A DNA stretch of 64,000 bases, taken from NCBI RefSeq assembly GCF_004364285.1, contig NZ_SOBE01000004.1:124001-188000 (forward strand), in the 5' to 3' direction. A program made the translations under genes and the position numbers. The stretch is from Frigoribacterium sp. PhB116. GTDB lineage: Bacteria; Actinomycetota; Actinomycetes; Actinomycetales; Microbacteriaceae. Shown piece after piece: positions 37,262 through 62,145 of the stretch. The notes beneath the pieces are model-generated. The model saw only the letters and a program-made list of their open reading frames with translations. It was not told the DNA's origin and ran no database searches. Every line of letters starts with the position of its first letter. Positions within the stretch are counted from its first letter, which is position 1.

Positions 37262-38268
37262 GCCGCGGAGGTGCGACCGGCGGAGGCGCGACGGATGGAG
37301 GCGCGATCGGCGGAGGCGCGACCGGCGGAGGCACGACCGGCCGTACCGCGACCGGCCGTGGTGCGACCGGCCGTCGAGGCGCGACCGGCCGTGGTGCGAC
37401 CGTCCGTGGTGCGGAGGGCGAGCGCGAGATCCCCGCCGCCGCCCTCCGCGTCCGCGGCCTCGGGGTCGAGCTCGAGGGCACGACGATCCTCGACGGCGTC
37501 GACCTCGACGTCCGTCCCGGCGAGGTCGTGGCCCTGCTCGGCCCGAACGGCGCGGGCAAGTCGACCCTGCTCGGCTGTGTGGCCGGCGACGTCGCGGCCG
37601 CTCGCGGCACCGTGGAGCTGGACGAGCGCCTCCTCGGCTCCTTCAACTCCGGTGAGCGGGCACGTCGTCGCGGGGTCATGACGCAGGAGGCGCACGTCGC
37701 GTTCCCGTTCACGGTCGCGGAGGTCGTCGCGCTCGGCCGTGCCCCGTGGTCGCGCAGCCCGGAGGCGGACCGCGACGACGCCGTCGTCGACGAGGCGCTC
37801 GCCGCGACGGACACGACGGCGCTGAGCGACCGCCGGTTCCCGTCGCTCTCGGGCGGCGAGCGCGCCCGGGCCTCGTTCGCCCGGCTGCTGGCGCAGCGGA
37901 CGCCGGTGCTGCTGCTCGACGAGCCCACCGCCGCCCTCGACCTCGGCCACCAGGAGCAGCTGCTCGGCACCCTCCGCGACCTCGCCTCGGCGGGCGCCTC
38001 CGTCGTCGTGGTGCTGCACGACCTCAGCCTCGCGGCGGCCTGGGCCGACCGTCTCGTGCTGCTCGAGCGGGGCCGCGTCGTCGCGGCGGGCACCCCGACC
38101 GAGGTGCTCACGGCCGAGCGGGTGTCGCAGGTGTACGGGCACCCGGTCACGATCGTGCCCGACCCGTCGACCGGGGCGCCGCTCGTCGTGCCGGTGCGGG
38201 TGCGCGGGGGGTCGCCTCGCGAGCTACACCCCCGGACCAGCGCTGCACCCTCTGTTCCAGGGGTGTAG
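37258..38268 (+). CDS. hmuV: Heme ABC importer ATPase HmuV
   Basis: A 336-aa ATPase of the FecE/HmuV family. The first about 55 residues are a Gly/Ala/Thr/Arg low-complexity repeat (GATGG, later GATGR) that the family lacks. The ATPase domain then has Walker A LLGPNGAGKSTLL (about 94-106), the Q-loop MTQEAHVAF, signature LSGGERARASFARLLAQ (about 199-215), Walker B VLLLDEPTAALD and the switch His in VVVLHDLS. The last 15 codons and the stop lie inside the structured repeat element at 38221-38290, so the C-terminal tail is supplied by that element. The start overlaps hmuU. Confidence 0.9.
   Translation: MSRGGATGGGATDGGAIGGGATGGGTTGRTATGRGATGRRGATGRGATVRGAEGEREIPAAALRVRGLGVELEGTTILDGVDLDVRPGEVVALLGPNGAGKSTLLGCVAGDVAAARGTVELDERLLGSFNSGERARRRGVMTQEAHVAFPFTVAEVVALGRAPWSRSPEADRDDAVVDEALAATDTTALSDRRFPSLSGGERARASFARLLAQRTPVLLLDEPTAALDLGHQEQLLGTLRDLASAGASVVVVLHDLSLAAAWADRLVLLERGRVVAAGTPTEVLTAERVSQVYGHPVTIVPDPSTGAPLVVPVRVRGGSPRELHPRTSAAPSVPGV
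37267..37405 (+). repeat. 15-bp tandem repeat at start of hmuV
   Basis: About nine units with period 15 bp (one of 18 bp) based on GGAGGCGCGACCGGC, changing to CGTGGTGCGACCGGC in the second half. They encode GGATG and RGATG pentapeptides. Confidence 0.8.
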
Positions 38269-38290
38269 CGCTGGATCAGGGGTGTAGCTC
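38221..38290 (+). repeat. 70-nt structured element, copy 1
   Basis: A nested hairpin: outer arms 38221-38232 (GAGCTACACCCC) and 38279-38290 (GGGGTGTAGCTC) pair perfectly, and inner arms from 38237 and up to 38274 pair over 14 bp with one G-T wobble. The 70 nt can be aligned without gaps to 62076-62145 with 58 identities. Its 5' 48 nt form the end of hmuV. Confidence 0.8.
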
Positions 38291-38355
38291 GGCCGGAGCG
38301 CGGGCCGCGGGCCTGGAGCGCGTCGCTACGCTGGGGGTCGGCAGGGGAGGTCGCC

Positions 38356-40056
38356 GTGGGGAGCACGAAGCCGGTCGCCATGGCGGCGGTCCACGCGCTG
38401 GTCGTCGGCGCCGCCGTCGCGGTCGCGACTCCGTGGGCGCTCGTCGTGCCGGTGCTCGTCTCCCTCCTGACGGGTCCGCTCGGTGGTGCGGCGGTGGCCG
38501 GGGTGCCCGCGTTCGGCATCCTGTGGCTGCTCGACGCGGCGTTCCGGAACGGCCTGCCCGGGTCGGGCCTGAGGGCGGCGCTGCCCGCCGGCGTCCTGGC
38601 CTTCAGCGCGTTCGTCGTCTGCTCGGCACAGCTGCAGCTCTTCCGGGACCCGGAGGCGGCGGTCCCGTCGGACCTGTCGGTCGCCCTCTGGACGGGCGGG
38701 CTCAGCGCGGCAGCCGTGATCGTGACGCACGTCCTGTTCGACCGCGACCCGGTCGCCGCACGTGCCGAGCCCGGCATCGTCGATCTCGCCCATCCGACCA
38801 CGAGGAGCCCCGTGACCACGACTGACGGCACTGAGCCCGCCGCCGCAGCCTCCGAAGCCGACTCCGCCGAGCATGCCGAGGCTGCCAGACTCGCCGAGCC
38901 GGCCGCACCTGCCCCCGAGCGCTTCGACCACGTCGTCGTCGGCGGGGGCGTGATGGGGGCGGCGACCGCGCGGGCGCTGGCACGGGCAGGCGACGGCGGC
39001 GGCGCGAGCGTCCTGCTCGTCGAGCAGTTCGGCCGGGGCCACGACCACGGGTCGTCGCACGGCGCGAGCCGGATCTTCCGTCGCGGCTACACCGCCGACG
39101 ACTGGGTCGCGCTGACGGGCGACGCGATCACCGCCTGGCAGGCGCTCGAGGCCGAGACGGGTCGCACCCTGCTCGACTTCACGGGGGCGCTCGACCACGG
39201 CGACCCGGTCGCGCTCGACGAGATCCAGGCGGCGCTCGAGCGCGGCGGCGTCGTCCACGAGCGGCTCACGCCCGACGAGGCCGGCGCACGCTGGCCGGGG
39301 CTCCGCTTCGACACGAGCGTGTTGTTCCACCCGCAGGCGGGCCGGGTCCGCTCGGCCGACGCCGTCGAGGCGCTGCTCGACAGCGCCTCAGCCGCGGGCG
39401 CCGAGCTCCGCTTCGACACCGCCGTGGCCGCGATCGAGACGATGGGGGACGACGTCGTGCTCCGACTCGAGGGCGCAGGAGGCGCCTCCTCGACGGTCGT
39501 CTCGACCAGCGTCGTGCTCGCGGTCGGCTCCTGGGCGCGCTACCTGGCCGCGGACCTCGTGAGGCGCGCGGGAGCATCGCTGCCCGAGGTCAGGGTCACG
39601 CAGGAGGAGCCCGCCCACTTCGCGACGGAGCTGCCCGACGACGCCTGGCCGAGCTTCGTCCACCACCCGACCGACCCGGCGCTGCGGGCCCGGGTCAGCA
39701 CGATCTACGGGCTGCTCACCCCGGGCGAAGGCGTCAAGGTAGGGACCCACGGCACCGGCCGCGAGGTGCACCCTGACGCCCGTCTGACCTCGCCCGGCGC
39801 GGAGGGGCAGGCCGTGCTGCGCGACTACGTCGCCGCGTGGGTGCCCGGCGTCGACGTCGACACGCTCGCGCCGATCAGCTGCCTCTACGACACGACGCCG
39901 ACGGAGGACCCGGTGCTCGACCGCATCGGCTCCGTCACCGTCGCGACGGGCTTCTCGGGGCACGGCTTCAAGTTCGGCGCCGTCTTCGGCGCGCTGCTCG
40001 CGGGCGTCGCGACGGGGACTCCCGCGCCCGAGCGGTTCCGGTTGCGGCAGGGCTGA
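38356..40056 (+). CDS. Membrane domain fused to sarcosine-oxidase-like FAD enzyme
   Basis: A 566-aa open frame with no stop inside. Residues 1-135 have four hydrophobic segments (for example VHALVVGAAVAVATPWALVV and LSAAAVIVTHVLF), then a Glu/Ala-rich linker. Residues about 195-566 are a DAO-family flavoenzyme like monomeric sarcosine oxidase, with DHVVVGGGVMGAATARAL (about 195-212) and the C-terminal TGFSGHGFKFGAVFG (about 531-545). TACGCT (38327-38332) and GGGGAGG before the GTG at 38356 support the long form. GAGGAG before an in-frame GTG at 38812 would give the flavoenzyme alone (414 aa). The enzyme would oxidise an N-methylated or other secondary amine; substrate unknown. Confidence 0.7.
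   Translation: MGSTKPVAMAAVHALVVGAAVAVATPWALVVPVLVSLLTGPLGGAAVAGVPAFGILWLLDAAFRNGLPGSGLRAALPAGVLAFSAFVVCSAQLQLFRDPEAAVPSDLSVALWTGGLSAAAVIVTHVLFDRDPVAARAEPGIVDLAHPTTRSPVTTTDGTEPAAAASEADSAEHAEAARLAEPAAPAPERFDHVVVGGGVMGAATARALARAGDGGGASVLLVEQFGRGHDHGSSHGASRIFRRGYTADDWVALTGDAITAWQALEAETGRTLLDFTGALDHGDPVALDEIQAALERGGVVHERLTPDEAGARWPGLRFDTSVLFHPQAGRVRSADAVEALLDSASAAGAELRFDTAVAAIETMGDDVVLRLEGAGGASSTVVSTSVVLAVGSWARYLAADLVRRAGASLPEVRVTQEEPAHFATELPDDAWPSFVHHPTDPALRARVSTIYGLLTPGEGVKVGTHGTGREVHPDARLTSPGAEGQAVLRDYVAAWVPGVDVDTLAPISCLYDTTPTEDPVLDRIGSVTVATGFSGHGFKFGAVFGALLAGVATGTPAPERFRLRQG
38802..38814 (+). promoter_or_regulatory. Internal ribosome-binding site and alternative GTG start
   Basis: GAGGAG (38802-38807) lies 4 nt before an in-frame GTG (38812-38814) at the junction between the membrane part and the flavoenzyme part. 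It would allow separate translation of a soluble 414-aa oxidase. Confidence 0.5.
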
Positions 40057-40082
40057 CCCCCGTCGCGGCCCGGGGTCCTGGC

Positions 40083-40142
40083 CTCGCGTCGCTCAGGCCC
40101 CGCGTCGCTCAGGTCTCGCGTCTCAGGCCTCGAGTCGCTCGT
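40083..40142. repeat. Four imperfect tandem copies of a 16-bp unit
   Basis: The unit TCGCGTCGCTCAGGCC recurs with small changes between the stop of the oxidase (40056) and the end of the small membrane protein gene (40149). No gene is seen in it. Confidence 0.65.
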
Positions 40143-40148
40143 GCTTCG

Positions 40149-40370
40149 TCAGTCGTTCGTGGGGCGTCGCCTGCCGCCCCTGAGTCCCTGAGCGACGAAC
40201 ACGATGCCGACGACGAGCATCGGCAGTCCCGCCCACGGCGTGTCGAGCGCGAGGAACAGCGTGAGGCCGAGCAGGCCGAACACCACCCCGATCCCGATGT
40301 TGTCGCTGCGCTTCTTCTCCTCCGCCGCGGCCTTCGCGCCGGCCTCTGTCTCGGGTCGCTCCTCGTCCAT
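40149..40370 (-). CDS. Small two-helix membrane protein
   Basis: A 73-aa protein with an acidic/basic soluble N-terminus (ERPETEAGAKAAAEEKKRSD), two short hydrophobic helices (IGIGVVFGLLGLTLFLAL and GLPMLVVGIVFVAQGL) and a basic end. No family recognised. The -10-like TAGCCT (40377-40382) is exactly 6 nt from the ATG, so translation is probably leaderless. It stands alone, tail-to-tail with the oxidase. Confidence 0.65.
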   Translation of the reverse strand: MDEERPETEAGAKAAAEEKKRSDNIGIGVVFGLLGLTLFLALDTPWAGLPMLVVGIVFVAQGLRGGRRRPTND

Positions 40371-40452
40371 CGCTCCAGGCTAGGCAGGTGCTCGCGTCGA
40401 GTCCTCCCTCTCCCGACGGACCTCAGGAGGAGGTCGTCCCGACCGCCTTCGC

Positions 40453-40498
40453 GCGCGGCGGGCGCGGCGGGCGCGGCGGGCGGCGGGCGGCGGGCGGC
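40453..40498. repeat. GC-only simple repeat
   Basis: A run of GCGCGGCGG units that decays to GCGGCGG units, immediately downstream of the flavoprotein gene that ends at 40500. No coding signal. Confidence 0.7.
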
Positions 40499-40499
40499 G

Positions 40500-41678
40500 T
40501 CAGCCGTCGCGGCCGAGCAGGTCGCGCGCGAGCTCGCGGACCGCGGCGCGGCCGGCGCGGTTCGCGCCCACGGTCGACTGCGAGGGCCCGAAGCCGATCA
40601 GGTGCACCCGCCGGTCGCGGGCGGCCCGGGTGCCGACGAGCGGGACGCCGCCGAGCGGCCCGCGCAGGTCGAGCCCGTCGAGGTGCCCGACGCTCGGCCG
40701 GAACCCCGTCGCCCACAGCACGGCGTCGACGCTCGTCGTCGAGCCGTCGGCCTCGACCACGTGCCGCGGCCCCATCGCGGTGAACATCGGACGCCTCTCG
40801 AGCACGCCGCGCCGCGCGGCCTCGCGGGCGTAGCCGGTCCAGATCAGCCCGGTGTACGACACGATGCTGCCCGGGAGGCGGCCGGCCGCAGCGTCCTCGG
40901 CGACCCGGCGCTCGACGTCGACGCCGTCCGACCCCGAGGTGAAGTCGTGGTCGAGGAACACCGGCTCACGCCGCGTGTACCAGAGCGTCGTCGCGACCCG
41001 GCTGATCTCGTCGAGCAGCTGCACCGCCGAGATGCCGCCGCCGACGACGGCGACGCGCCTCCCCGCGAACTCGGCCGCCGAGACGTACTCGCGTGTGTGC
41101 AGCTGACGACCTGTGAACGAGGAGGCGCCGGGCACGTCCGGCAGCACCGGCTCGTCCCAGGTGCCCGTCGCGTTCACCAGCGCGGACGTCGTCCACGTCC
41201 CGGCGTCGCTCTCGACCCGCAGCAGGCCCGCGGGGTCGTCGTCGACGGCGTCGACCCTCGTCACCTGCACGGGACGGTGCACCCGCAGCTGCTCCGCCTC
41301 CTCGTAGGCGGTGAAGTAGCGCGGCACGGCGACCCGGCTCGGCTCGGACTCGTCGACGGGCGGCAGCGCCATGCCCGGCAGGTCGAAGATGCCGTTGACG
41401 GTGGCCATCCGCAGCGACTCCCAGCGGTGCTGCCACGCGCCTCCCGGTGCCTCGCCGGCGTCGACGACGACGAACGTCGGCGCAGTGTCCGCAGAGCCAG
41501 GGCCAGGGCCAGGGCCAGAGCCAGAGCCAGAGCGGGAGCCGGAGCCGGAGCCGGAGACTGCACTGCCCTCGGCCGCGACGAACCCCCGGAGGCGCAGGTG
41601 GTGCGCCGCGGACAGCCCGGCCTGGCCTGCCCCCACGACGGTGACCGTCGCGTGCCGCAGGTCGTCGAGGGGGTGCAC
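40500..41678 (-). CDS. Flavin monooxygenase-like protein with Ser/Gly/Pro insertion
   Basis: A 392-aa FAD/NAD(P)H-dependent oxidoreductase of the flavin-containing monooxygenase-like group. FAD motif VTVVGAGQAGLSAAHHL (about 12-28), PGGAWQHRWESLRM (about 78-91), a second dinucleotide motif VAVVGGGISAVQLLDE (about 190-205), and the ATGFRPS motif near 330. Between the first beta-alpha unit and the second strand (FVVVDAGEAPGG) sits a 21-residue Ser-Gly/Gly-Pro repeat (about 42-62) coded by a hexanucleotide array; family members have only a tight turn there. GTG start; TAGCGT (41685-41690) is 6 nt upstream, so the mRNA is probably leaderless. Substrate unknown. Confidence 0.85.
   Translation of the reverse strand: MHPLDDLRHATVTVVGAGQAGLSAAHHLRLRGFVAAEGSAVSGSGSGSRSGSGSGPGPGPGSADTAPTFVVVDAGEAPGGAWQHRWESLRMATVNGIFDLPGMALPPVDESEPSRVAVPRYFTAYEEAEQLRVHRPVQVTRVDAVDDDPAGLLRVESDAGTWTTSALVNATGTWDEPVLPDVPGASSFTGRQLHTREYVSAAEFAGRRVAVVGGGISAVQLLDEISRVATTLWYTRREPVFLDHDFTSGSDGVDVERRVAEDAAAGRLPGSIVSYTGLIWTGYAREAARRGVLERRPMFTAMGPRHVVEADGSTTSVDAVLWATGFRPSVGHLDGLDLRGPLGGVPLVGTRAARDRRVHLIGFGPSQSTVGANRAGRAAVRELARDLLGRDG
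41493..41558 (-). repeat. Hexanucleotide array, 11 units, inside flavoprotein gene
   Basis: Eleven units of the form AGRGCC/GGAGCC run without interruption from 41493 to 41558, in three homogeneous blocks (AGGGCC x3, AGAGCC, GGAGCC x3). They encode Gly-Pro and Gly-Ser dipeptides. Unit number can change without a frameshift. Confidence 0.88.
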
Positions 41679-41763
41679 GGGACCACGCTACGGCGGTGAC
41701 CGGGGAGGCCCGTCGCGCAGCGCCCACGGCCGGTCACCCGAGCCGCCCGCGCGCCCTTTCGCG

Positions 41764-41782
41764 GACCCCCATTCCGGGGGTC
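41764..41782. other. Short hairpin upstream of the giant surface-protein gene
   Basis: GACCCCC (41764-41770) and GGGGGTC (41776-41782) pair around a 5-nt loop. The gap 41691-41936 holds no gene that I can support; TATCGT at 41842-41847 is a possible -10 box for the gene at 41937. Confidence 0.4.
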
Positions 41783-41936
41783 GCCAGGTCGGATCGGGGG
41801 ACATGCGGCGAAATAGGTCGAGCGATCCTCGCCGACGTGCCCTATCGTCGGGCGGGTAGCGAGTCTGCTGCCTCGGTCTCACCAACCGACGGCGCAGGCG
41901 CCAACCACCGCTGCCATGAGGATCAGGAGCGAGTCC

Positions 41937-44900
41937 ATGAGGACTGAAGCACTCGCGCGCGCCGAAAAAGGGCGACCGACCGCGCACCGTCACCACTCCA
42001 GGGCGAAGCAGGGCGTGGCCGTGCTCACGGCCGCCCTGCTCGGCATCGGCGGCAGCGTGCTCGCCGCGGCCCCGGCCACGGCCGCACCGGCGGCCTCGAT
42101 CGCGGAGGGCAGGTTCCTCGACGGCACCGCCCTCGGGCTCGACCTCGCGAACGTTCTGCTGCTGCAGCCCGCCGCGGCGACGAACACGGGCCAGCCGGCC
42201 CCGGTGACGCAGTCGACGCCCCTCGACGTGACGGTGCTGAACGCGGCCCGCGCCGACCTCGGCAGCGGCATCCAGCTGCTCGGCCCGAACGGCCTCCTCA
42301 CCGTCGGCGCCGTCAACCAGTACGCGCAGGCGAACGCGAACGGCAGCTCGACCGCCGCCTCCGGTGCCGTGACCAACGGAGGCGCGATCGGCGTCGGCGG
42401 CCAGGCCGGGGTGCCGCAGGCGAACGCCAGCTTCAACCTCAGCCGTCTGGTGAACACGCAGGCCCTCGCCAACCTCCGCGTCACGACGGGCGCGCTCTCG
42501 GCCACCGCGGCTCAGACCGCCGGGCCGAACGGGGCCCAGACCGGCGCGTACCAGATCGCCGACCTCGACCTCAGCCTCACCAGCCCGGTCCTCGCGACGA
42601 CGATCAACGGCCTCCGCTCGACCCTCACGGGCCTGCAGCCCACCGTCGACGCGATCCCCGGCACCCTGACCGGCCTCCTCGGGCCGACCGTCCAGGTCAC
42701 GGGCCTGCCGAACCTGACCACCCTCGGCAACTCGCTCACGACCGTGACGAGCGCCGACGGGTCGATCACCGCGAACCTGCAGACGGGCGCGATCACGATC
42801 GACGTCCCGACCGTCCTCGCGACGCAGGGCGTGAACATCAACACGCTGCCGGCCGGCACCGAACTGACGCCCTACATCACGACCGCGCTCACGACGCAGC
42901 TGCTCCCGGCCGTCACGGTCGCGCTGCAGTCCCTGGTGACGCAGATCACCAGCGGCCTCAACGGCGTCACGGCGACCGTCAACGTGCTCGGCGCGCGGGT
43001 GCCCGTCTCGCTCGCCGTGCTCTCGCCGGTCCTCAACACGGTGATCGGCACCGTCGTGGCGCCGGTGAACACCGTCATCTCGGGCCTCGGCGGCACCGTG
43101 GTCACCCCGCTCGCGAGCGCCCTCACCGGCGTCGTGTCGCTGCGGGCGAACAACAAGACGACCGCCGGCGGCACCTTCACGCAGAGCGCCCTCCGCGTCG
43201 GCCTGCTCGGCGTCCTCCAGGCAGGCACCGCAGTGGAGCTCGCCTCCGCCTCGGTCGGCCCGAACGCCGGCCCGCTCGCGGCCCCGACGCTCACCGGCAT
43301 CACGCCCGTCGAGGGCCCGGTCGCGGGCGGCACCGCCGTCACGCTCACCGGCTCGGCCTTCACCGCGGACTCGCGCGTGAGCGTCGACGGCGGCGCGCCG
43401 ATCACGCCCACGGCGGTCTCGGACGACGGCACCTCGCTCACCTTCGCCACGCCCGCCCACGCGGCAGGACCGGTGCCCGTCACCGTCACCACCGCGGTCG
43501 GCACCTCCGGCCCGCAGACCTTCACCTACATCCCGGTGCCCGCGATCACGGGCCTCACCCCCGCGCAGGGCCCCGTCGGAGGCGGCACCACGGTGACCGT
43601 CGCCGGTTCCGGGTTCCTCGCCGACTCGACCGTCTCGGTCGACGGCTCCGCGCCGATCACGCCCGACAGCATCGCCGCGGACGGCACCTCGCTGACGTTC
43701 ACGACGCCGGCGCACGCCCTCGGCGACGTGCCCGTCACGGTGACGACGCGCGGGGGCACCAGCGCCCCGCAGACGTTCACCTACCTGCCCGCGCCCGCGG
43801 GCGCGCCCGTCCTGGCCGGCATCACGCCGGACGAGGGCCTGGCAGGAGGCGGCACCCCCGTCACGATCACCGGCACCGGCTTCTCCGCCGGCTCGACGGT
43901 CTCCGTCGACGGGTCCGAGCCGATCACGCCCGACACGATCGCGACGGACGGCACCTCGCTGACGTTCACGACGCCCGCGCACGCCCCCGGCCCGGTGCCG
44001 GTGACGGTCACGAACGGCACGGGCACCTCGGCGCCCCAGACGTTCACGTACCTCGCGCCTCCGCTCGCCGCTCCCGTCCTGGACACGATCACGCCTGACG
44101 AGGGCCCGGTGGGAGGCGGCACCTCCGTCACCATCACCGGCACCGGCTTCACCGCCGGCTCCACGGTCTCGGTCGACGGCTCGGCCCCGATCACGCCCGA
44201 CGCGCTCGCCGACGACGGCACGTCGTTGACGTTCACGACGCCCGCGCACGTCGAGGGCACCATCGCCGTCACGGTGACGAACGCCGGCGGCACGTCCTCG
44301 CCCCTGGACTTCACCTACACGCCCGCCCCGGCCACCGCGCCGGTGCTGATCGACATCGAGCCCGAGGTCGGTCCGGCAGGAGGCGGCACCCCCGTCACGA
44401 TCACCGGCACCGGCTTCACCGCCGGCTCGACGGTCTCGGTCGACGGCTCCGCCCCGATCACGCCCGACACGATCGCGACCGACGGCACGTCGCTGACGTA
44501 CACCTCGCCGGCGCACGTCGCCGGCACGGTGCCCGTCACGGTGACGAACGACGGCGGCACCTCCGCCCCGCTCGACTTCACCTACGAGCCCGCCCCCCTC
44601 GCCGCTCCCGTGCTCGCCACGATCGACCCCGACGAGGGGCCGGCAGGAGGCGGCACCGCCGTCACGATCACCGGCACCGGCTTCGAGGTCGGCTCGACGG
44701 TCTCGGTCGACGGCTCGGCACCGATCACGCCCACGGTGATCGCTGCCGACGGCACCTCGCTCACGTACACGGCCCCGGCGCACGTCGCCGGCACCGTGCC
44801 CGTCACGGTGACGAACGCGGGCGGCACCTCCGCCCCGCTCGAGTTCACCTACCTGCCCGCACCTCCGACGGCGCCCGTGCTCGCGACGATCGACCCTGCC

Positions 44901-48836: not shown

Positions 48837-48878
48837 GTCCGCTCAGCAGCTGAGCCGCTGAGCCCGCTCAGCGACCGC

Positions 48879-49649: not shown

Positions 49650-49709
49650 GAACCGCGATCCGAACCATGAACCGCGACAAAGCGCGGTTCATGGTTCGGA
49701 ATCCGGTTC
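49650..49709. terminator. Long interrupted hairpin after membrane-protein gene
   Basis: A perfect 18-bp core (49659-49676 with 49683-49700, arm TCCGAACCATGAACCGCG, loop ACAAAG) extends outward past a one-base bulge on each side to GAACCG (49650-49655) pairing with CGGTTC (49704-49709). The arms are richer in A+T than the surroundings. Placed 22 nt after the stop at 49628. Confidence 0.65.
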
Positions 49710-54346: not shown

Positions 54347-54394
54347 GGTCCCCCTCGGTAGGCCTCCAGCATGCTCTGGCGAGCGTGTGCGCGC

Positions 54395-54416
54395 TCGCAG
54401 GAGGCGCCTCCTGCGA
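54395..54416. other. 22-bp perfect palindrome containing GGAGGCGCCTCC
   Basis: The centre GGAGGCGCCTCC is flanked by TCGCA on the left and TGCGA on the right, a fully symmetric sequence in the 432-nt gene-free stretch 54347-54778. It joins two copies of the octamer GGAGGCGC that is over-represented in the whole window. Confidence 0.75.
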
Positions 54417-54441
54417 CGAGCGGGAGAGTCACCCCATCGGG

Positions 54442-54558
54442 GGGTGCCTCGGCTCCGAAGACATGCCCGGGTGTTCCCTAGGCACCCTGCGCGGCTCGCG
54501 GCCGCGCGCCTCCGGGAGCCCGAACTCCCGGCGGACGCCGAGAGCCCCGACTCTCGGC
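54442..54558 (+). other. Cluster of stem-loops, possible leader RNA
   Basis: Three inverted repeats follow each other: GGGTGCCT (54442-54449) with AGGCACCC (54480-54487); CCGGGAG (54512-54518) with CTCCCGG (54525-54531), loop CCCGAA; and GCCGAGAG (54537-54544) with CTCTCGGC (54551-54558), loop CCCCGA. They lie 220-340 nt upstream of the GlsB-like gene on the same strand. No riboswitch class is recognised. The rest of 54347-54778 holds no gene I can support. Confidence 0.45.
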
Positions 54559-54778
54559 ACGGGCTCCTGCGTCAAGGGCGACGCACGGGCCTGCCAGGGG
54601 GCTCGCCCGGGGCGCCGGCGCAGGACACCTGCCGTTCACCTACTCTTCGTCCGATCAGTGCACAAGGGGGTGTTCCTGACCAATTCCGGACAAAGCGCCT
54701 GGCTGGGAGCAAGCTGGTGGTCGACCTCGGGTCGCCTGCCCCGAAGCGGCCCCTCACCTTCTTACGAAAGGGCTCATC

Positions 54779-55048
54779 ATGGGCTTCCTCGCCTTCATCC
54801 TCCTCGGCCTCATCGCCGGCGCCATCGCCAAGCTCATCCTCCCCGGCCGTCAGGGCGGCGGATGGCTCGCCACCCTCGTCCTCGGCGTGATCGGCGCCCT
54901 CATCGGCGGCTGGATCGGCGGCGCCGTGTTCGGCGTCGGCTACGACGGCTTCTTCTCCATCCAGAGCTGGCTCATCGCCATCGTCGGCGCCATCGTCGTC
55001 CTGCTCATCTGGGGCCTCATCACCGGTCGTCGCGGCGCCAAGCGCTGA
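54779..55048 (+). CDS. GlsB/YeaQ/YmgE family stress membrane protein
   Basis: An 89-aa membrane protein of the transglycosylase-associated/GlsB family: FLAFILLGLIAGAIAKLILP, then the Gly-rich WLATLVLGVIGALIGGWIGG and a final helix IVGAIVVLLIWGLI with a basic end. Length and motifs are typical. In other bacteria members are induced by envelope or general stress. AAAGGG lies 8 nt before the ATG. A 432-nt gene-free region with stem-loops precedes it and a clear terminator follows. Confidence 0.88.
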   Translation: MGFLAFILLGLIAGAIAKLILPGRQGGGWLATLVLGVIGALIGGWIGGAVFGVGYDGFFSIQSWLIAIVGAIVVLLIWGLITGRRGAKR

Positions 55049-55064
55049 CTCGACCCGCAGCAAC

Positions 55065-55099
55065 CGAAGGCCCCCGTCGCTCTGCGGCGGGGGCCTTCG
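55065..55099 (+). terminator. GC-rich terminator after the GlsB-like gene
   Basis: CGAAGGCCCCCG (55065-55076) pairs perfectly with CGGGGGCCTTCG (55088-55099), and the stem continues inward to a 3-nt loop. It also closes the convergent LacI gene that ends at 55109. Confidence 0.85.
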
Positions 55100-55108
55100 C
55101 CGTCCCCG

Positions 55109-56134
55109 CTAGCGGCTCGCCGGCACCGGCACCGGCCCCGTCGTGCCGCGGACGACGAGCTTCGTCGGCAGCTGCACCTCGGGCCGGTCGATGACCCCGC
55201 CCTCGAGCAGCGTGAACAGCATGGTCGTGGCCACCGTCCCGAGGCGGTGCATCGGCTGCCGCACGGTCGTCAGCGCCGGCTGCTCCCGCGAGGCCTCGGG
55301 GATGTCGTCGAACCCGACGAGGCTGAGGTCGTCGGGCACGCGCAGGCCGAGCTCGTGGGCCGTGCGCAGCACGGCGATCGCCGACAGGTCGTTGGCCGCG
55401 AACACGGCGGTCGGGCGGTCGGCCGCCCTGACGTCGAGCAGCTCGCGGGCGGCACGGCGTGCGGCGCCCATCTCGAAGTCGCCGTCACGGGTCAGCGCGG
55501 GGTCGCGCACGATGCCCGCCGAGCGGAGCGCGTCGGCGTAGCCGGCCTCGCGCAGCGACGCGGAGCGCAGGTCGGGCCGCCCGGCGAGGAACCCGATGCG
55601 CCGGTGCCCCAGGGAGACGAGGTGCTCGACCGCCTGCACCGCGCCTCCTCGGCTGTCGGCCTCGACGCTCGGCAGGTCGGCACGCCCCTTGTGCGGGTCG
55701 ACCGCGACGACCGGCACGCTCGTGGTCGTCGTCAGGACCGACGGGGTGACGAGGATCGCGCCGTCGATGAGCGTGCCGCTGAGGCGGCTGAGCGAGCGAC
55801 GCTCCCAGCCGTCGGCGCCGCCCTGGTGCGCGCCGCTGTAGGCCAGCAGGTCGTACTCGGCGCCGAGCTGGCGCACGGCGGTGCCGACGCCCTTGAGCAC
55901 CTCCGAGCTGAACGGCTCGAAGTCGGCCACGAGCACGCCGATCACCCCGGTGCGGCGGGCCCGCATGCTGCTGGCGACCAGGCTCGACTCGTAGCCGAGC
56001 GCGTCGACGACGGCCATCACCTTCGCCGTCGTCTCGGGGGAGACCCCGTACCGGCCGTTGACCGCCTTCGAGACGGTCGCGAGCGAGACGCCCGCCGCCG
56101 CGGCGACGTCGTGGATGGTCGGACGGGCGTTCAC
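55109..56134 (-). CDS. LacI-family regulator of the GH3/ABC operon (BxlR-like)
   Basis: A 341-aa LacI-type repressor. HTH TIHDVAAAAGVSLATVSKAVNG is at about residues 5-26, then hinge VASSMRARRTGVIGVL and the sensor domain (VFAANDLSAIAVLR, DDLSLVGFDDIPEASREQPA). The GTG at 56134 gives the normal N-terminus; the open frame extends to 56221 only through the promoter region. A -10-like TAGGCT (56142-56147) is 7 nt from this GTG. It is divergent from the importer operon with a shared operator (56162-56173) between them, so it probably controls both, with xylobiose or a related sugar as inducer. Confidence 0.88.
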   Translation of the reverse strand: MNARPTIHDVAAAAGVSLATVSKAVNGRYGVSPETTAKVMAVVDALGYESSLVASSMRARRTGVIGVLVADFEPFSSEVLKGVGTAVRQLGAEYDLLAYSGAHQGGADGWERRSLSRLSGTLIDGAILVTPSVLTTTTSVPVVAVDPHKGRADLPSVEADSRGGAVQAVEHLVSLGHRRIGFLAGRPDLRSASLREAGYADALRSAGIVRDPALTRDGDFEMGAARRAARELLDVRAADRPTAVFAANDLSAIAVLRTAHELGLRVPDDLSLVGFDDIPEASREQPALTTVRQPMHRLGTVATTMLFTLLEGGVIDRPEVQLPTKLVVRGTTGPVPVPASR

Positions 56135-56141
56135 GAGCGCG

Positions 56142-56204
56142 AGCCTAGCCCCGTCGAAATGGTTTTCGAAAACGTTTGACACCCCCTCTGCCATTTCTGA
56201 CACT
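56142..56204. promoter_or_regulatory. Divergent promoters sharing one LacI operator
   Basis: GTTTTCGAAAAC (56162-56173) is a perfect palindrome with central CpG. To the right TTGACA (56176-56181) and GACACT (56199-56204, 17-bp spacing) can drive the importer operon. To the left TAGGCT (56142-56147, minus strand) serves the regulator, with the operator over its -35 position. Confidence 0.7.
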
Positions 56205-56280
56205 GGTCCGACGCAGCACATCGGAGCGCTGCGTCACGGGCCGACCACGGCCGCTCAACGACGAGGAACAGGTGGCAACG

Positions 56281-57582
56281 ATGGCGAGCAAGACGATGAC
56301 GACCCGACGACTCCTGGCAGGGTCCGCAGCCCTGCTGGTGGGAGCCGGGCTGCTGACCGGCTGCAGCGCAGGCGGCAGCGGAGGAGGTGCCGACGACGGC
56401 ACCCTCACCCTCTGGCAGAACTCCACCACCGGTCCCGGCCAGGACTTCTGGACGAAGGCGGCGGCCGACTTCACGAAGGCGAACCCGGACGTCGCGATCG
56501 ACGTCCAGACGGTGCAGAACGAGGACTTCGACAGCAAGCTGCAGACCGCCCTCAACTCGGGCGACGCCCCCGACGTGTTCCTGCAGCGCGGCGGCGGCAA
56601 GCTCCAGGCGATGGTCCAGGCCGGCCAGGTGAAGGACATCACCGACGGCATCTCCGACGACGCCCGCGCCGACATCAGCGAGGGCACGTTCGGCGCCGGC
56701 TCGATCGACGGCAAGGTCTACTCGATGCCGATCGCGGTGCTGCCCGGCGGCTTCTGGTACAGCCAGGACGTCTTCTCCGCGGCCGGCATCAGCACGCCCC
56801 CCACGACGATGGACGAGCTCGACGAGGCCGTCACGGCGCTGAAGGACTCGGGCACGCAGCCCGTCGCCCTCGGCGGCAAGGACGCCTGGCCCGCCGCGCA
56901 CTGGTACTTCTTCTTCGCCCTGCGCGCCTGCAGCAGCGACACGCTGGAGCAGGCCGCGACCGACCGCGACTTCAGCGACCCGTGCTGGGTCGACGCGGCG
57001 CAGGACCTCGCCGACTTCCGCGACACCGAGCCCTTCAACGAGGGCTTCCTCACCACGGCCGCCCAGCAGGGCGCCGGCAGCTCGGCCGGCCTCATCGCCA
57101 ACAAGCAGGCCGGCATGGAGCTGATGGGCGCGTGGGACCCGGGCGTCATCGCCTCGCTCACGCCCGACGCGAAGCCGCTGCCCGACCTCGGCTGGTTCCC
57201 GTTCCCCGCGATCGACGGCGGCGACGGCGAGCCCGGCGCGATCATGGGCGGCGTCGACGGCTACTCGTGCTCGGCCGGCGCACCCGACTCGTGCGTCGAC
57301 TTCCTGAACTACCTGGCCACCCCCGACGTGCAGGAGGCCTACTACAAGGCCTTCAACGCACCTCCGGTGAACACGGTCGCCCAGGAGGCCGTCACGGAGC
57401 CGTACCTGCAGGAGGTGCTGGCCGCCTACAACGACGCCCCGTTCGTCTCGCAGTGGCTCGACACCGTCTACGGCCTCAACGTCGGCAACGCGATGAACGT
57501 CGCCGTGGTCGACCTGCTCTCGGGCGACGGCACGCCGCAGGAGTTCGTCGACGCCGTCGACGCGGCCGCCAAGAAGGCGTAG
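56281..57582 (+). CDS. CUT1 sugar-binding lipoprotein (BxlE-like)
   Basis: A 433-aa SBP family 1 lipoprotein: signal with TTRRLLAGSAALLVGAGLLTGC (lipobox LLTGC, Cys about 27), Gly/Ser linker, then a typical binding domain (LTLWQNSTTGPGQDFW; YSMPIAVLPGGFWYSQDVF; FPAIDGGDGEPGAIMGG). ATG at 56281 is used with AGGTGG 5 nt upstream; a GTG 9 nt earlier is possible. It is first in an SBP-permease-permease-GH3 operon, the same gene order as the Streptomyces bxlEFGA xylobiose system. Substrate inferred to be a beta-linked disaccharide. Confidence 0.88.
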   Translation: MASKTMTTRRLLAGSAALLVGAGLLTGCSAGGSGGGADDGTLTLWQNSTTGPGQDFWTKAAADFTKANPDVAIDVQTVQNEDFDSKLQTALNSGDAPDVFLQRGGGKLQAMVQAGQVKDITDGISDDARADISEGTFGAGSIDGKVYSMPIAVLPGGFWYSQDVFSAAGISTPPTTMDELDEAVTALKDSGTQPVALGGKDAWPAAHWYFFFALRACSSDTLEQAATDRDFSDPCWVDAAQDLADFRDTEPFNEGFLTTAAQQGAGSSAGLIANKQAGMELMGAWDPGVIASLTPDAKPLPDLGWFPFPAIDGGDGEPGAIMGGVDGYSCSAGAPDSCVDFLNYLATPDVQEAYYKAFNAPPVNTVAQEAVTEPYLQEVLAAYNDAPFVSQWLDTVYGLNVGNAMNVAVVDLLSGDGTPQEFVDAVDAAAKKA

Positions 57583-57589
57583 GCCCCTC

Positions 57590-58612
57590 GTGAGCCTCCG
57601 CGAACCCCCCGTGCGGCCCGCCGCACCAGCCGGGGCTCACGCCACCGCCGGGGGCGAGGCAGTCGCCTCGCCCCCGGCGGCCTCCCGGGCCGTGTCCCGG
57701 CAGGGGCGTGGTGCCCGCGGCCTCGAGATCGCGCTGCTGGTCGGACCGGCCCTCGTGGTCTTCCTGGCCTTCGTGGTCTTCCCGATCGTGATGGCCGCCT
57801 ACTACGGCTTCTTCAGCTGGCAGGGCTTCGGCCCGCCGACCGACTTCGTCGGGTTCCGCAACTACCTGACGATCTTCCAGGACACGACGTTCCTCGACGC
57901 CCTGCGCCACAACGCCACGATCGTGGTGCTCTCGCTGGTGCTGCAGGGGCCCGTCGCGATCGGCCTGGCCCTGCTGCTCAACCGCAAGCTGCGCGGGCAG
58001 TCGCTGATCCGGGTGCTGATCTTCGTGCCCTACGTGATCAGCGAGGTCGTCGTCGGCACCGGCTGGAGCCTCATGCTCCAGGGCAGCGGCGCCGTCAACG
58101 ACGTGCTGACGAAGGTCGGCCTCGGCGCCTTCACGCAGGACTGGCTCGCCGACCCGAGCATCGCCATCTGGACCCTGCTCGTCATCATCACCTGGAAGTA
58201 CGTCGGCTTCGCCGTGATCCTGTTCCTCGCCGGCCTGCAGGGCGTGCCCGAGGAGCTCAGCGAGGCGGCGGCGATCGACGGCGCGAGCTGGTGGCAGATC
58301 CAGCGCCGCATCACGCTGCCGCTGCTCGGCCCGACCCTGCGCATCTGGGCGTTCCTGTCGATCATCGGCTCGCTGCAGCTGTTCGACCTCGTCTACATCA
58401 TCTGGGGCCAGTACATCGCGGCCACCGCCGGCACGTCGACGATGGCGACGTACATGGTCGCCAACGGCCGCACCTCGGGCAGCTACGGCTACGGCAACGC
58501 CGTCGCCGTCGTGCTGTTCCTCATCTCGCTCGTCGTCGCCCTCTTCTACCAGCGCTTCGTGCTGCGGCGCGACACGGCCGGCGCCCTCACCACGTCAGGA
58601 GACGAGTCATGA
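57590..58612 (+). CDS. CUT1 ABC sugar permease (MalF type, BxlF-like)
   Basis: A 340-aa permease with a Pro/Ala/Gly-rich cytoplasmic N-terminus (about 40 residues) and six predicted transmembrane helices. The EAA loop ELSEAAAIDGASWWQIQRRI lies at about residues 222-241. GTG start 7 nt after the binding-protein stop; the end overlaps the next permease by 4 bp. Unlike the rhamnoside operon, no stem-loop separates it from the binding protein. Confidence 0.9.
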   Translation: MSLREPPVRPAAPAGAHATAGGEAVASPPAASRAVSRQGRGARGLEIALLVGPALVVFLAFVVFPIVMAAYYGFFSWQGFGPPTDFVGFRNYLTIFQDTTFLDALRHNATIVVLSLVLQGPVAIGLALLLNRKLRGQSLIRVLIFVPYVISEVVVGTGWSLMLQGSGAVNDVLTKVGLGAFTQDWLADPSIAIWTLLVIITWKYVGFAVILFLAGLQGVPEELSEAAAIDGASWWQIQRRITLPLLGPTLRIWAFLSIIGSLQLFDLVYIIWGQYIAATAGTSTMATYMVANGRTSGSYGYGNAVAVVLFLISLVVALFYQRFVLRRDTAGALTTSGDES

Positions 58613-59550
58613 CCGCGAGCACCCTGCCCGCCCGCCCCCGCGGCGCGGCGGGCCCGGACGGCGGAGGCGCGGGCGCACCGGCGCGCACGCCCCGGTCCAC
58701 GGCCGACCGGCCGACCCGCAGGAGGCGCGGCATCGCCGACCCCGGACGCGGCGTCGCGTACGTGGTCGCGGCGGTCGTCATCGTGGCGATGCTCGCCCCC
58801 GTGGCGTTCATCGTGATCGGCGGCTTCCGCACCAACGCGCAGATCACGACCGACCCCTCCGGGTTCCCGAGCCCCTGGCAGGTCGGCAACTACCTCGACG
58901 TGCTGACGGGCGGCACCTTCTGGCGGCAGGTCGGCAACTCGCTGATCTCGGCCGGCGCCACCACGATCGGCACGGTCGCCCTCGGCCTCGCCGCGAGCTA
59001 CGTGCTGGCGCGCTACCGGTTCGCCGGGCGGGGAGTGCTCTACGCGCTCTTCGCCGCCGGGCTGATGTTCCCGATGACCGTGGCCATCACGCCGCTCTAC
59101 CTCGTGATCCGCGACCTGGGGCTGACGAACTCGCTGGCCGGGGTGATCCTGCCGCAGATCGCCTTCGCGCTGCCGACGACGATCATCATCCTCGTGCCGT
59201 TCCTCCGCGCGATCCCCGACGAGATCGAGGAGGCCGCGTTCATCGACGGCTGCAGCCGACTCGGCTTCTTCTTCCGCATGGTGGTGCGCCTGTCGCTGCC
59301 GGGGGTGATCACGGTCGGCATCCTCGCCTTCATCGGCGCGTGGAACTCGTACCTGCTGCCGCTGTTCATCCTCAACGACCCGTCGACGTTCACCCTGCCG
59401 CTCGGCGTGCAGGCGTTCTCGTCGCAGTACTCGGTCGACACGGCACGGGTGCTCGCCTTCACGGCGCTGTCGATGCTGCCCGCGCTGATCTTCTTCAGCC
59501 TGTTCGAGCGCCGCATCGTCGGCGGCCTGACGGGGGCGGTGAAGGGATGA
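58609..59550 (+). CDS. CUT1 ABC sugar permease (MalG type, BxlG-like)
   Basis: A 313-aa permease with a 45-residue low-complexity N-terminus followed by six predicted helices. The EAA loop EIEEAAFIDGCSRLGFFFRM is at about residues 205-224, and the C-terminal RRIVGGLTGAVKG is the usual MalG-type ending. The ATG lies in the stop of the previous gene, and its own stop overlaps the GH3 start (ATGA), so all four genes are translationally linked. Confidence 0.9.
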   Translation: MTASTLPARPRGAAGPDGGGAGAPARTPRSTADRPTRRRRGIADPGRGVAYVVAAVVIVAMLAPVAFIVIGGFRTNAQITTDPSGFPSPWQVGNYLDVLTGGTFWRQVGNSLISAGATTIGTVALGLAASYVLARYRFAGRGVLYALFAAGLMFPMTVAITPLYLVIRDLGLTNSLAGVILPQIAFALPTTIIILVPFLRAIPDEIEEAAFIDGCSRLGFFFRMVVRLSLPGVITVGILAFIGAWNSYLLPLFILNDPSTFTLPLGVQAFSSQYSVDTARVLAFTALSMLPALIFFSLFERRIVGGLTGAVKG

Positions 59551-62030
59551 CCATCGAGATCCAGCACGAGACGGATCGCCACGGGGACGACGGCCGGCCC
59601 GACGGGCGTGCCGGGGGCCGCGTCGGGGGTCGAGCCGAGGAGGCGCGGGCCGCGACGAGCGCGACCGGTCTCGTCCTCAGCGACCGCGTCCGCCGCCTCC
59701 TCGACGACATGTCGCTCGACGAGAAGCTGGCCCAGCTGGTCGGCTGGTGGGTCGACCAGGGCGGCGGCGCCGTGGCGCCGATGCAGGGTGCGATGACCCC
59801 CAGCGACGACTACGGAGCGGCGACCGAGCACGGCCTCGGGCACCTGACCCGGGTCTACGGGACGCGACCGGTCGACCCGGTGCAGCGCGCCTCCTGGCTG
59901 TGGGAGGAGCAGCGCCGGCTGCGCACCGAGACGCGTCTCGGCATCCCGGCGATCGTGCACGAGGAGTGCCTGACGGGCCTCGCCGCCTGGCAGGCCGCGA
60001 CGTTCCCGACGCCGCTCGCGTGGGGCGCCTCCTTCGACCCCGACCTCGTGGAGCGGATGGCGGCGCTGATCGGCGGCTCCATGCGCGAGCTCGGCGTGCA
60101 CCAGGGCCTCGCGCCGGTGCTCGACGTGGTCCGCGACCCGCGGTGGGGGCGCGTCGACGAGTGCATCGCCGAGGACCCGTACGTCGTGGGCACCGTCGGC
60201 ACCGCGTACGTGCGCGGCCTCCAGTCGGCCGGGGTGCACGCCACGCTCAAGCACTTCGTCGGCTACTCGCTCTCGGACGCGGGCCGCAACCACGCCCCCG
60301 CGAACGTCGGGCCGCGCTACCTCGCCGACGTGCTGCTGCCGCCGTTCGAGATGGCCGTGCGCGACGGCGGGGTGCGCTCGGTGATGAACTCGTACGCCGA
60401 GGTCGACGGCGTGCCCGTCGGGTCGACGCCCGAGTACCTGACCGACCTGCTGCGCGGCGAGTGGGGCTTCGACGGCGTCGTCGTGTCCGACTACTTCGCG
60501 GTGGCGTTCCTCGAGGTCATGCACGCCGTCGCCGCCGACCGCGGCGAGGCCGCCGCGCTCGCCCTCGAGGCGGGCATCGACGTCGAGCTGCCCACCGGCG
60601 ACGCCTACCTCGCCCCGCTCGCCGAGCGCGTGCGGGCCGGGCTGGTCGACGAGACGCTGGTCGACCTCGCGGTCGCCCGCGTGCTCGCGGAGAAGGAGGA
60701 GCTCGGCCTGCTCGATGAGGCCGCGCTCGACGCCGCGGAGGCAGCCGGGCCGCCGACCGAGATCGACCTCGACAGCCCGGCGCACCGCGCGGTCGCGCGC
60801 CGCCTGGCCGACGAGTCGGTCGTGCTGCTCACGAACGACGGGGTGCTGCCGCTCGGCGGTGGCGGTGGCGGTGGCGCCGGGGGCGGCGTCGACCCGAGCG
60901 CCGGCCCGGCCCGTGTCGCCTTGATCGGCCCGAACGCCGACAGCGCCGAGGCGCTGATGGGCTGCTACTCCTTCGTCAACCACGTGCTGGCGCACCACCC
61001 CGGGGTGCCCACGGGCATCGCGGTGCCGACCGTGGCGGAGGCCCTCCGCGAGGAGCTGCCCTCCGCCGAGCTCGTCGTCGTGCCCGGCTGCGAGGTCGAG
61101 GGCGCTCTCGACGCGGACGCCCGCTCGGGCATCGACGAGGCCGTCCGCGAGGCAGCGGCCTCCGACGTCGCCGTCGTCGTGGTCGGCGACCGCGCCGGGC
61201 TCTTCGGCCGCGGCACCGTCGGCGAGGGCAACGACGTCGAGAGCCTCGAGCTGCCGGGACCGCAGCGCGACCTCGTGGAGGCGGTCGTCGCCTCCGGCAC
61301 CCCGGTCGTGCTGGTCGTGCTGTCGGGTCGTCCCTACGCGATCGGCTGGGCGGTCTCCGGGCCGTCCGCCCCGGCGGCGGTCGTGCAGGCGTTCTTCCCG
61401 GGGGAGGAGGGCGGCCCCGCGATCGCCGGCGTGCTCTCGGGCAGCGTCGTGCCCTCGGGCCGGCTGCCCGTCTCGCTGCCGCGGTCGGCCGGCGCGCAGC
61501 CGTTCTCGTACCTGCACCCGCCGCTCGGCGGCCCGAGCGAGGTGACGAGCGCCGACAGCACCCCCGTGCTGCCGTTCGGCCACGGTCTCTCGTACACGAC
61601 GTTCGAGCGGTCGGGGCTCGCCGTCGAGGGTGCAGGCTCGGGCGCGGGCGAGGTGCCCGCAGGAGGCGCGTTCACCGCGACCGTGACGGTGCGGAACACG
61701 GGCGGCCGGGCCGGCGCCGACGTGGTGCAGCTCTACGCGCACGACGTCGTCGCCTCGGTGACCCGGCCGGTCGCGCAGCTGCTCGGCTACGCCCGGGTCG
61801 AGCTCGAGCCGGGGCAGGAGGCGCGGGTGACGTTCCACGTGCCCACGCAGCGTCTCGCGTTCAGCGACCGCCGGATGCGGCGCGTGGTCGAGCCCGGCGC
61901 CGTGGAGCTCTGGGTCGGTGCCTCGTGCGCCGAGCGCGAGACGCAGGCGGCGCTCGCGATCACCGGGCCGGTGCACCTCGTCGGTCTCGACGACGCCCGC
62001 GTGGTCGCGGTCGAGGTCGAGCTGCGCTGA
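59547..62030 (+). CDS. GH3 beta-glycosidase, probable beta-xylosidase
   Basis: An 827-aa cytoplasmic family 3 glycoside hydrolase. A charged N-terminus (about 40 residues) precedes the TIM-barrel domain, with HATLKHFVGYSLSDAGRNHA (about 232-251) and the nucleophile Asp in GVVVSDYFAV (about residue 315). The second alpha/beta domain (about 410-640) begins after LADESVVLLTNDGVLPL, interrupted by a Gly-rich run. A C-terminal Fn3-like domain follows (about 700-800). The KHF...AGRN region and operon context resemble Streptomyces BxlA beta-xylosidase. No signal peptide, so it acts on imported oligosaccharides. ATG at 59547 overlaps the permease stop. Confidence 0.92.
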   Translation: MTIEIQHETDRHGDDGRPDGRAGGRVGGRAEEARAATSATGLVLSDRVRRLLDDMSLDEKLAQLVGWWVDQGGGAVAPMQGAMTPSDDYGAATEHGLGHLTRVYGTRPVDPVQRASWLWEEQRRLRTETRLGIPAIVHEECLTGLAAWQAATFPTPLAWGASFDPDLVERMAALIGGSMRELGVHQGLAPVLDVVRDPRWGRVDECIAEDPYVVGTVGTAYVRGLQSAGVHATLKHFVGYSLSDAGRNHAPANVGPRYLADVLLPPFEMAVRDGGVRSVMNSYAEVDGVPVGSTPEYLTDLLRGEWGFDGVVVSDYFAVAFLEVMHAVAADRGEAAALALEAGIDVELPTGDAYLAPLAERVRAGLVDETLVDLAVARVLAEKEELGLLDEAALDAAEAAGPPTEIDLDSPAHRAVARRLADESVVLLTNDGVLPLGGGGGGGAGGGVDPSAGPARVALIGPNADSAEALMGCYSFVNHVLAHHPGVPTGIAVPTVAEALREELPSAELVVVPGCEVEGALDADARSGIDEAVREAAASDVAVVVVGDRAGLFGRGTVGEGNDVESLELPGPQRDLVEAVVASGTPVVLVVLSGRPYAIGWAVSGPSAPAAVVQAFFPGEEGGPAIAGVLSGSVVPSGRLPVSLPRSAGAQPFSYLHPPLGGPSEVTSADSTPVLPFGHGLSYTTFERSGLAVEGAGSGAGEVPAGGAFTATVTVRNTGGRAGADVVQLYAHDVVASVTRPVAQLLGYARVELEPGQEARVTFHVPTQRLAFSDRRMRRVVEPGAVELWVGASCAERETQAALAITGPVHLVGLDDARVVAVEVELR

Positions 62031-62075
62031 GCCCGCTCGTGCGGGCGTTCGCTCGTGCGCTCGTGCGTGCGTGCC

Positions 62076-62145
62076 GAGCTGCACCCCTCGACCGGCGCTG
62101 CACCCCGTGATCCGGGGGTGTAGCGCCGGATCGGTGGCGTAGCTC
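62076..62145 (+). repeat. 70-nt structured element, copy 2
   Basis: Same length and nested fold as 38221-38290, ungapped with 58 of 70 identities. It begins GAGCTGCACCCC and ends GGCGTAGCTC, with inner arms CCGGCGCTGCACCCC and GGGGTGTAGCGCCGG. One difference pair (62094 A to G and 62127 T to C relative to copy 1) keeps the base pair. It lies 45 nt after the GH3 stop. Confidence 0.8.

What the first reader, a model, noticed from the sequence alone, without database searches (positions are those of the whole stretch)
38221..62145. Two copies of a 70-nt nested-hairpin element with a compensatory base change
38221-38290 and 62076-62145 align over exactly 70 nt without gaps, 58 identities. Both fold into a two-tier hairpin (12-bp outer stem, about 14-bp inner stem). 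At stem positions 19 and 52 copy 1 has A-T and copy 2 has G-C; position 31 changes a T-G wobble to C-G. Such paired changes argue for selection on RNA (or cruciform) structure. Both copies lie on the + strand directly after the last gene of a + strand importer operon, and one supplies the last 15 codons and stop of hmuV. It is not a U-tract terminator. It may be a REP-like element or a 3'-end RNA module that I do not know from the literature.
Basis: partly seen in the sequence, partly recalled or inferred. Interest (0 to 1): 0.72.

Follow-up and report, generated by a model that had tools for sequence, protein, structure and literature searches.

The report
Dispersed nested hairpins at gene ends
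The two look-alike 70-base hairpins belong to a family of small palindromic DNA repeats scattered mostly at the ends of genes in this bacterial genus, and their matching base changes seem to arise when copies are made rather than from selection on a folded RNA.

Summary
In detail: 58 of 70 identities, deep hairpins (z -10.3, -7.9), and the A-T to G-C pair exists; but of seven differing pairs three are broken in copy 2. They are not a pair. A covariance model finds 49 places in this genome (a lower bound), matches in 15 of 15 other genus members and 2 of 2 Curtobacterium genomes tried, and few in most other genera of the family. The plan: one 6-10-nt box twice per arm, 19 nt apart, around a short loop. 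Other hairpins, two in the window, have this plan with different boxes. By midpoint 26 copies are convergent, 21 between co-directional genes, 0 divergent, 2 inside genes; no U-tracts. Copies covary strongly, yet at orthologous sites 1 of 81 changed pairs is compensated (3 of 116 with all pairs), against 76 of 460 between paralogues of similar divergence (p = 4e-5), and G-U is not preferred over A-C. So symmetry is renewed when copies are made, or only symmetric copies spread; selection on RNA at each site is not supported. I read them as REP/MITE-like non-autonomous repeats, perhaps used as 3'-end hairpins. They lack the REP tag, and 16 of 16 genus genomes lack the RAYT family. The mover is unknown.

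The parts
38220..38291 (+). Copy 1: nested palindrome, subfamily A (boxes CTACACCC / CTGCACCC), overlapping the end of hmuV and its TAG stop
   Evidence: (R1 E 4.4e-20)
62075..62146 (+). Copy 2: nested palindrome, subfamily A, in the convergent gap between the + gene ending 62030 and the - gene ending 62157
   Evidence: (R1 E 2.8e-17)
29366..29431 (.). Hairpin with the same plan and a different box (CGACGCG twice per arm, 19 nt apart), convergent gap
49650..49709 (.). Hairpin with the same plan and a different box (GAACCGCG twice per arm, 19 nt apart), 21 nt after a + gene
37258..38268 (+). hmuV-like ATPase gene whose last 15 codons and stop lie inside copy 1

Best explanation
The two copies belong to a family of small (58-72 bp) dispersed palindromic repeats, REP/MITE-like in behaviour and without a gene of their own. 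Each is one long hairpin in which both arms carry the same box twice, 19 nt apart. Shown: dispersal, genus-wide presence, a recurrent architecture with exchangeable boxes, 3'-end placement, differences between species at orthologous sites, and covariation between copies but not within orthologous sites. Inferred: the folded single strand (or cruciform) is what is copied or recognised, so every new copy starts as a near-perfect palindrome and its arms then decay. Copies survive mainly downstream of genes, where long U-less hairpins are tolerated and may act as bidirectional 3'-end or terminator structures. The enzyme that moves them is not identified; it is not a Y1 (RAYT/TnpA-REP) transposase recognisable by PF01797.
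For: Copies: 96 matches on both strands = 49 places in the own genome; 15 of 15 other genus members; 51 and 34 matches in Curtobacterium sp. ZW137 and PhB115. Near-identical subfamily B copies suggest recent dispersal. Architecture: in 464 kb taken without regard to the family, 5 of 15 long hairpins repeat a run of 6 nt or more at lag 19 or 20, all five with boxes other than CACCCC; shuffled mean 0.138, 0 of 5000 shuffles reach 5. Curtobacterium copies keep lag 19 with other boxes. Place: 0 of 47 intergenic copies divergent, p = 3e-6; 26 convergent, p = 6e-9. Turnover: of 24 G008 copies with both anchors in the own genome, 18 have a related sequence there, 4 (3 junctions) a hairpin of another subfamily, 1 only a simple hairpin, 1 nothing. 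Compensation: orthologues 1 of 81 changed pairs, paralogues 76 of 460.
Against: No insertion was caught cleanly: no convincing target-site duplication (a 4-bp repeat at offset 1 in 5.5% of 128 v 1.0% shuffled), and the one empty site could equally be a deletion. No transposase was linked to the copies. Orthologous copies are more conserved (85.9% identity, 0 gapped of 811 columns) than intergenic flanks (78.8%, 484 gapped), so some constraint may act at the site, though I chose the 14 pairs as recognisable ones. The orthologue test rests on 15 to 18 pairs from two genomes. Divergent copies do occur elsewhere in the genus (2 of 6 in G007).
Confidence: 0.6

Rival explanations
1. Host 3'-end RNA module: the hairpins are U-less, bidirectional transcription terminators or mRNA 3'-end stabilisers, kept by selection on the folded RNA. 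This can coexist with mobility.
For: 0 of 47 intergenic copies in divergent gaps and 26 convergent; 18 of 21 co-directional copies lie nearer the upstream 3' end. Long hairpins in general, simple and nested together, share the placement (34 in 464 kb: 21 convergent, 10 co-directional, 0 divergent, 3 inside genes). At 4 of 24 places another nested subfamily, and at 1 a simple hairpin, stands in the other species. Orthologous copies are better conserved than their flanks.
Against: No U-tract (12% T downstream). G-U 60 v A-C 48 on the transcribed strand. One compensated of 81 changed pairs at orthologous sites. A convergent, 3'-end bias of stem-loops is general in bacteria (passage of PMC1590033) and may only reflect avoidance of genes and promoters.
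Confidence: 0.25
2. In-place palindrome correction: template switching at each site copies one arm onto the other, giving covariation without selection or movement.
For: The mechanism is described for RNA stems (PMC8794818, abstract and start of the introduction); one orthologous pair (465774) has its loop apparently inverted, as template switching can cause (PMC8604942, listing only).
Against: It should produce compensated differences at orthologous sites; 1 of 81 (3 of 116 with all pairs) was seen. It does not explain shared boxes at scattered loci.
Confidence: 0.08
3. Protein-binding DNA site: two box duplexes about two helical turns apart (19-20 bp) bind a nucleoid or recombination protein, and the palindrome matters as dsDNA or cruciform.
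For: Box pair and lag are more constant than the bases between; G-U and A-C about equal, as for a double-stranded object.
Against: Box sequences differ widely between subfamilies; no binding protein was looked for; a dsDNA site does not need the variable 13-nt spacers to be complementary.
Confidence: 0.1

Closest known systems
REP sequences / REPINs with RAYT (TnpA-REP)
   Same: Small extragenic palindromes, many copies, several families per genome, mostly downstream of genes in convergent or co-directional gaps, sometimes reaching into genes (PMC3733652 and PMC3116915, abstracts).
   Different: No flanking GTAG or CGTC tag; no PF01797 gene in 16 of 16 genus genomes; one 58-72-nt hairpin with a repeated box per arm rather than a 20-40-bp palindrome or a doublet of palindromes.
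MITEs (miniature inverted-repeat transposable elements; definition recalled)
   Same: Short, non-coding, inverted-repeat, dispersed, present or absent at orthologous sites.
   Different: No convincing target-site duplication; an autonomous parent with matching ends was not searched for.
Intrinsic (Rho-independent) terminators
   Same: Stable GC-rich hairpins soon after stop codons and between convergent genes.
   Different: No U-tract, far longer stems, dispersed sequence families with a fixed internal period.
Integron attC sites (recalled, not searched)
   Same: Nested pairs of boxes in a folded strand, at gene 3' ends.
   Different: The 49 places are scattered over six of eight contigs, not in cassette arrays; no attC model or integrase was searched.

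Membership tests
REP (GTAG/CGTC-tagged palindromes) | Unpaired GTAG or CGTC tag at one end | tested here: not met
   GTAG within 10 nt of the core in 4 of 127 copies (controls 4 and 3); CGTC 38 of 127 (controls 27 and 30)
REP (GTAG/CGTC-tagged palindromes) | 20-40-bp palindrome, high copy number, extragenic | tested here: inconclusive
   47 of 49 own copies extragenic by midpoint, at least 49 copies, but core 58 nt and hairpin up to 72 nt
REPIN / RAYT system | Y1 tyrosine transposase (PF01797) in the genome | tested here: not met
   0 of 16 genus genomes, own included; 6 of 14 control genomes ring. CGTC REPs too are reported without a dedicated transposase (PMC3733652 abstract)
REPIN / RAYT system | Doublet of inverted REPs, each itself a palindrome | tested here: not met
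   By inspection of the alignments, arms are not palindromic; they hold a direct repeat of one box
MITE | Target-site duplication | tested here: not met
   No convincing flanking direct repeat in 128 copies; 4 bp at offset 1 in 5.5% v 1.0% shuffled
MITE | Terminal repeats shared with an autonomous transposon | not tested
   No search for a parent element was run; only PF01797 was searched
Intrinsic terminator | U-tract after the stem | tested here: not met
   12% T in the next 12 nt; 1 of 140 flanks of nested hairpins with 5 or more T in the first 9
Intrinsic terminator | Stops transcription | not testable with these tools
   needs RNA 3'-end data
Structured RNA family (Rfam) | Match above a gathering score | tested here: not met
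   0 matches in the window; around copy 1, 35 sub-threshold matches to miRNA and one snoRNA models

The most novel reading that the evidence does not exclude
A class of mobile DNA hairpins defined by architecture and not by sequence (two identical boxes 19 nt apart in each arm), copied through a folded single strand by a non-Y1 enzyme that rebuilds both arms from one, so that every new copy is born symmetric. This would give strong covariation without any selection on RNA.
Probability: 0.3. Interest if true: 0.78.

Novelty: new variant of a known kind. Interest (0 to 1): 0.55.

Why it matters
Compensatory base changes are the usual evidence for a conserved RNA fold. Here paralogous copies show them strongly and orthologous sites do not: alignments of dispersed copies can imitate RNA covariation. 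It also adds a repeat class with a 19-nt period to an actinobacterial group in which my searches of the held open-access papers found none described, and raises the question of what moves hairpins where no RAYT gene is found.

Tried and rejected
A first own-genome gapped pattern had a one-base spacing error and fewer hits than its control; the covariance models replaced it.

RAYT-driven REP: rejected. Target-site duplication: not convincing. Two G008 copies flank about 4.3 kb that the own genome lacks; the segment holds a glycosidase-like gene and no transposase by eye; recombination between copies fits as well as an insertion.

Covariation on the first six copies was not above shuffles (3 both-sided cells, shuffled mean 2.6). 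With 25 copies (of 28 places at E <= 10; three weak ones left out) 117 cells against 49, 0 of 500 shuffles; but the number of pairs with a both-sided change, 19 against 16.8, is reached by 62 of 500 shuffles.

Plasmids (copy 1) and phages (a subfamily B copy): no match. Literature searches gave nothing on these repeats in Microbacteriaceae.

Weak points. G-U/A-C counts: one search used nested hairpins only, all hairpins with arms of 24 or more. The orthologue pairs were picked by me; 3 of 18 with divergence 0.25 or more were dropped there, one with 2 compensated pairs; with all 18 it is 3 of 116 v 76 of 460, p = 2e-5. Twelve typed pairs gave 3 of 68, 2.0 expected. For 5 of the 18 related own sequences the hairpin threshold was not passed. 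Only 150 of 4307 candidates were scored. Most copies outside the 464 kb were found with a model that has the 19-nt spacing built in. HmuV tails vary anyway: of six other HmuV proteins printed one has a longer unrelated tail. G008: 42 places, the weak 38-nt one at 14346 not examined; G007: 6 of 9 examined.
Full report
OBSERVATION. The two stretches match over 70 nt without gaps, 58 identities, and fold into deep hairpins. No other place in the window reaches 40 identities with copy 1. The A-T to G-C pair at 19/52 and the T-G to C-G change at 31/40 are real. Of seven pairs that differ, three Watson-Crick pairs are broken in copy 2, so the two copies alone do not argue for maintained pairing.

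A FAMILY, NOT A PAIR. Short-motif hits in the own genome led to four more copies. A covariance model from six (R1) found 28 places at E <= 10, 26 at E < 0.05. One from 25 (R2) found 96 matches on both strands, that is 49 places, with only 150 of 4307 candidates scored. Each of the 15 other genus genomes has matches (15 to 82 on both strands, scored candidates capped at 82). In a sample of 150 family genomes, own included, 10 had a match at E <= 1e-4, in 7 of 85 genera; the highest outside the genus are g53 (31 and 6) and g5 (8). Curtobacterium sp. ZW137 and PhB115 have 51 and 34 matches; the eleven other genomes of that search 0 to 2. By contig the 49 places are uneven: 7 on C1 (41% of the genome), 19 on C2, 8 on C3, 9 on C4, 4 on C6, 2 on C7.

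ANATOMY. The plan is box - 13 nt - box - 8-nt loop - box' - 13 nt' - box'; a few copies depart from it by small indels. The boxes are nearly fixed within a subfamily and the spacers vary with their partners: 84.1% of cells paired, 117 cells changed on both sides against a shuffled mean of 49 (0 of 500 shuffles); 19 of 32 pairs have such a change (mean 16.8, reached by 62 of 500). Other hairpins have the same plan with other boxes: CGACGCG, GAACCGCG, CACCGCC, CTGCACCG and, at lag 20, GAGGGCGGGT. In 464 kb chosen without regard to the family (the window plus 20 stretches), 5 of 15 long hairpins repeat a run of at least 6 nt at lag 19 (three) or 20 (two); none of these five is of the CACCCC type; shuffled mean 0.138, 0 of 5000 shuffles reach 5. 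In Curtobacterium the boxes differ again and lag 19 stays, with the caution that those copies were found with a model that holds that spacing.

PLACE. With a gene caller trained here, the 49 own copies are, by midpoint, 26 convergent, 12 ++, 9 --, 0 divergent and 2 inside a gene call, one of them hmuV. Gaps of 72 nt or more in the 464 kb are 34 convergent, 112 co-directional, 48 divergent, giving p = 3e-6 for none divergent and p = 6e-9 for the convergent excess. 18 of 21 co-directional copies are nearer the upstream gene's 3' end. G008: 20 convergent, 18 co-directional, 3 inside, 0 divergent of 41 examined; G007: 2 of 6 divergent. Counting all hairpins with a repeated box, divergent ones are 4 of 109 (one of them in the own genome) and 4 of 74 in further genus and Curtobacterium loci. 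No U-tract follows nested or simple hairpins (12% and 14% T). A preference of stem-loops for convergent gaps is general in bacteria (passage of PMC1590033).

WHAT HAPPENS OVER TIME. The hmuV copy is present at the same place in G008 (alignment 94% identical, element included), with the TAG stop inside the element. HmuV of Curtobacterium PhB115 ends near the point where the element-derived tail begins; it is one of six other HmuV proteins printed, of which five end within about a dozen residues of there and one runs longer. So the element probably replaced an older stop (inference). At copy 2's junction G012 has the same two genes and no element. Of 26 G008 places given to (of 41 examined), 24 had both anchors: 18 with a related sequence in the own genome (5 below the hairpin threshold), 4 (three junctions) with a nested hairpin of another subfamily, 1 with a simple hairpin only, 1 with nothing.

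WHERE THE COVARIATION COMES FROM. If the folded RNA were selected at each site, orthologous copies should show compensated changes and favour G-U intermediates. In 15 orthologous pairs (mean divergence 12.9%) 1 of 81 changed pairs is compensated (2.2 expected if independent), with 21 G-U and 22 A-C singles. In 92 within-genome paralogous pairs at 13.7% divergence 76 of 460 are compensated (14.9 expected); Fisher p = 4e-5. With the 3 more diverged orthologous pairs put back it is 3 of 116, p = 2e-5. A hand-typed set of 12 pairs gave 3 of 68, 2.0 expected. On the transcribed strand of co-directional copies G-U is 60 and A-C 48, p = 0.29. So copies seem to be born symmetric and then to decay. Two mechanisms fit: arms are rebuilt from one template during copying, or only symmetric copies are competent to spread. 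In-place template switching (PMC8794818, abstract) predicts compensated orthologues and is disfavoured. Against a purely neutral decay: orthologous elements are 85.9% identical with no gap in 811 columns, flanking intergenic sequence 78.8% with 484 gapped, coding 89.9% (14 pairs that I chose as recognisable).

KNOWN KINDS. It works like a REP or MITE, but is not filed as either. REP tags are not enriched, no PF01797 gene is found in 16 of 16 genus genomes, and no convincing target-site duplication was found. For REPs and REPINs I saw the abstracts of PMC3733652, PMC3116915 and PMC8266576, passages of PMC3733652, and the abstract and passages of PMC12306157. Rfam has no match at gathering scores.

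VERDICT. The RNA-selection reading is not supported; a mobile, hairpin-dependent repeat with a 19-nt period is the best reading, its mover unknown.

Noticed in passing
window 29366-29431 and 49650-49709; L198 1149-1210; L196 302-369; L194 5563-5626: Hairpins with the same two-boxes-per-arm plan at lag 19 or 20 but other box sequences.
   Followed up: partly
L186 4481-4525, L195 15760-15797, L191 343-380, L192 2406-2451: A second kind of repeated 3'-end hairpin, short and near-perfect with a GGAGGCGCG-type stem and no repeated box; it may be an ordinary U-less terminator of this genus.
   Followed up: no
L201 12451-12574: Long stretch of C and G homopolymer runs between convergent genes; possibly an assembly or sequencing oddity.
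   Followed up: no
L234 2033-6484 (G008:C1:2450332-2454783): Two subfamily B copies flank about 4.3 kb with a glycosidase-like gene; the own genome has a single copy and lacks the segment.
   Followed up: partly
L219 and L162 (G008 465774 v own C3:21888): The loop of an orthologous copy seems inverted between the two species.
   Followed up: no
own contig C1 against the others; G007: Copies are sparse on C1 (7 of 49 places on 41% of the genome), and G007 has far fewer matches (16) than G008 (82), 2 of 6 examined in divergent gaps.
   Followed up: no
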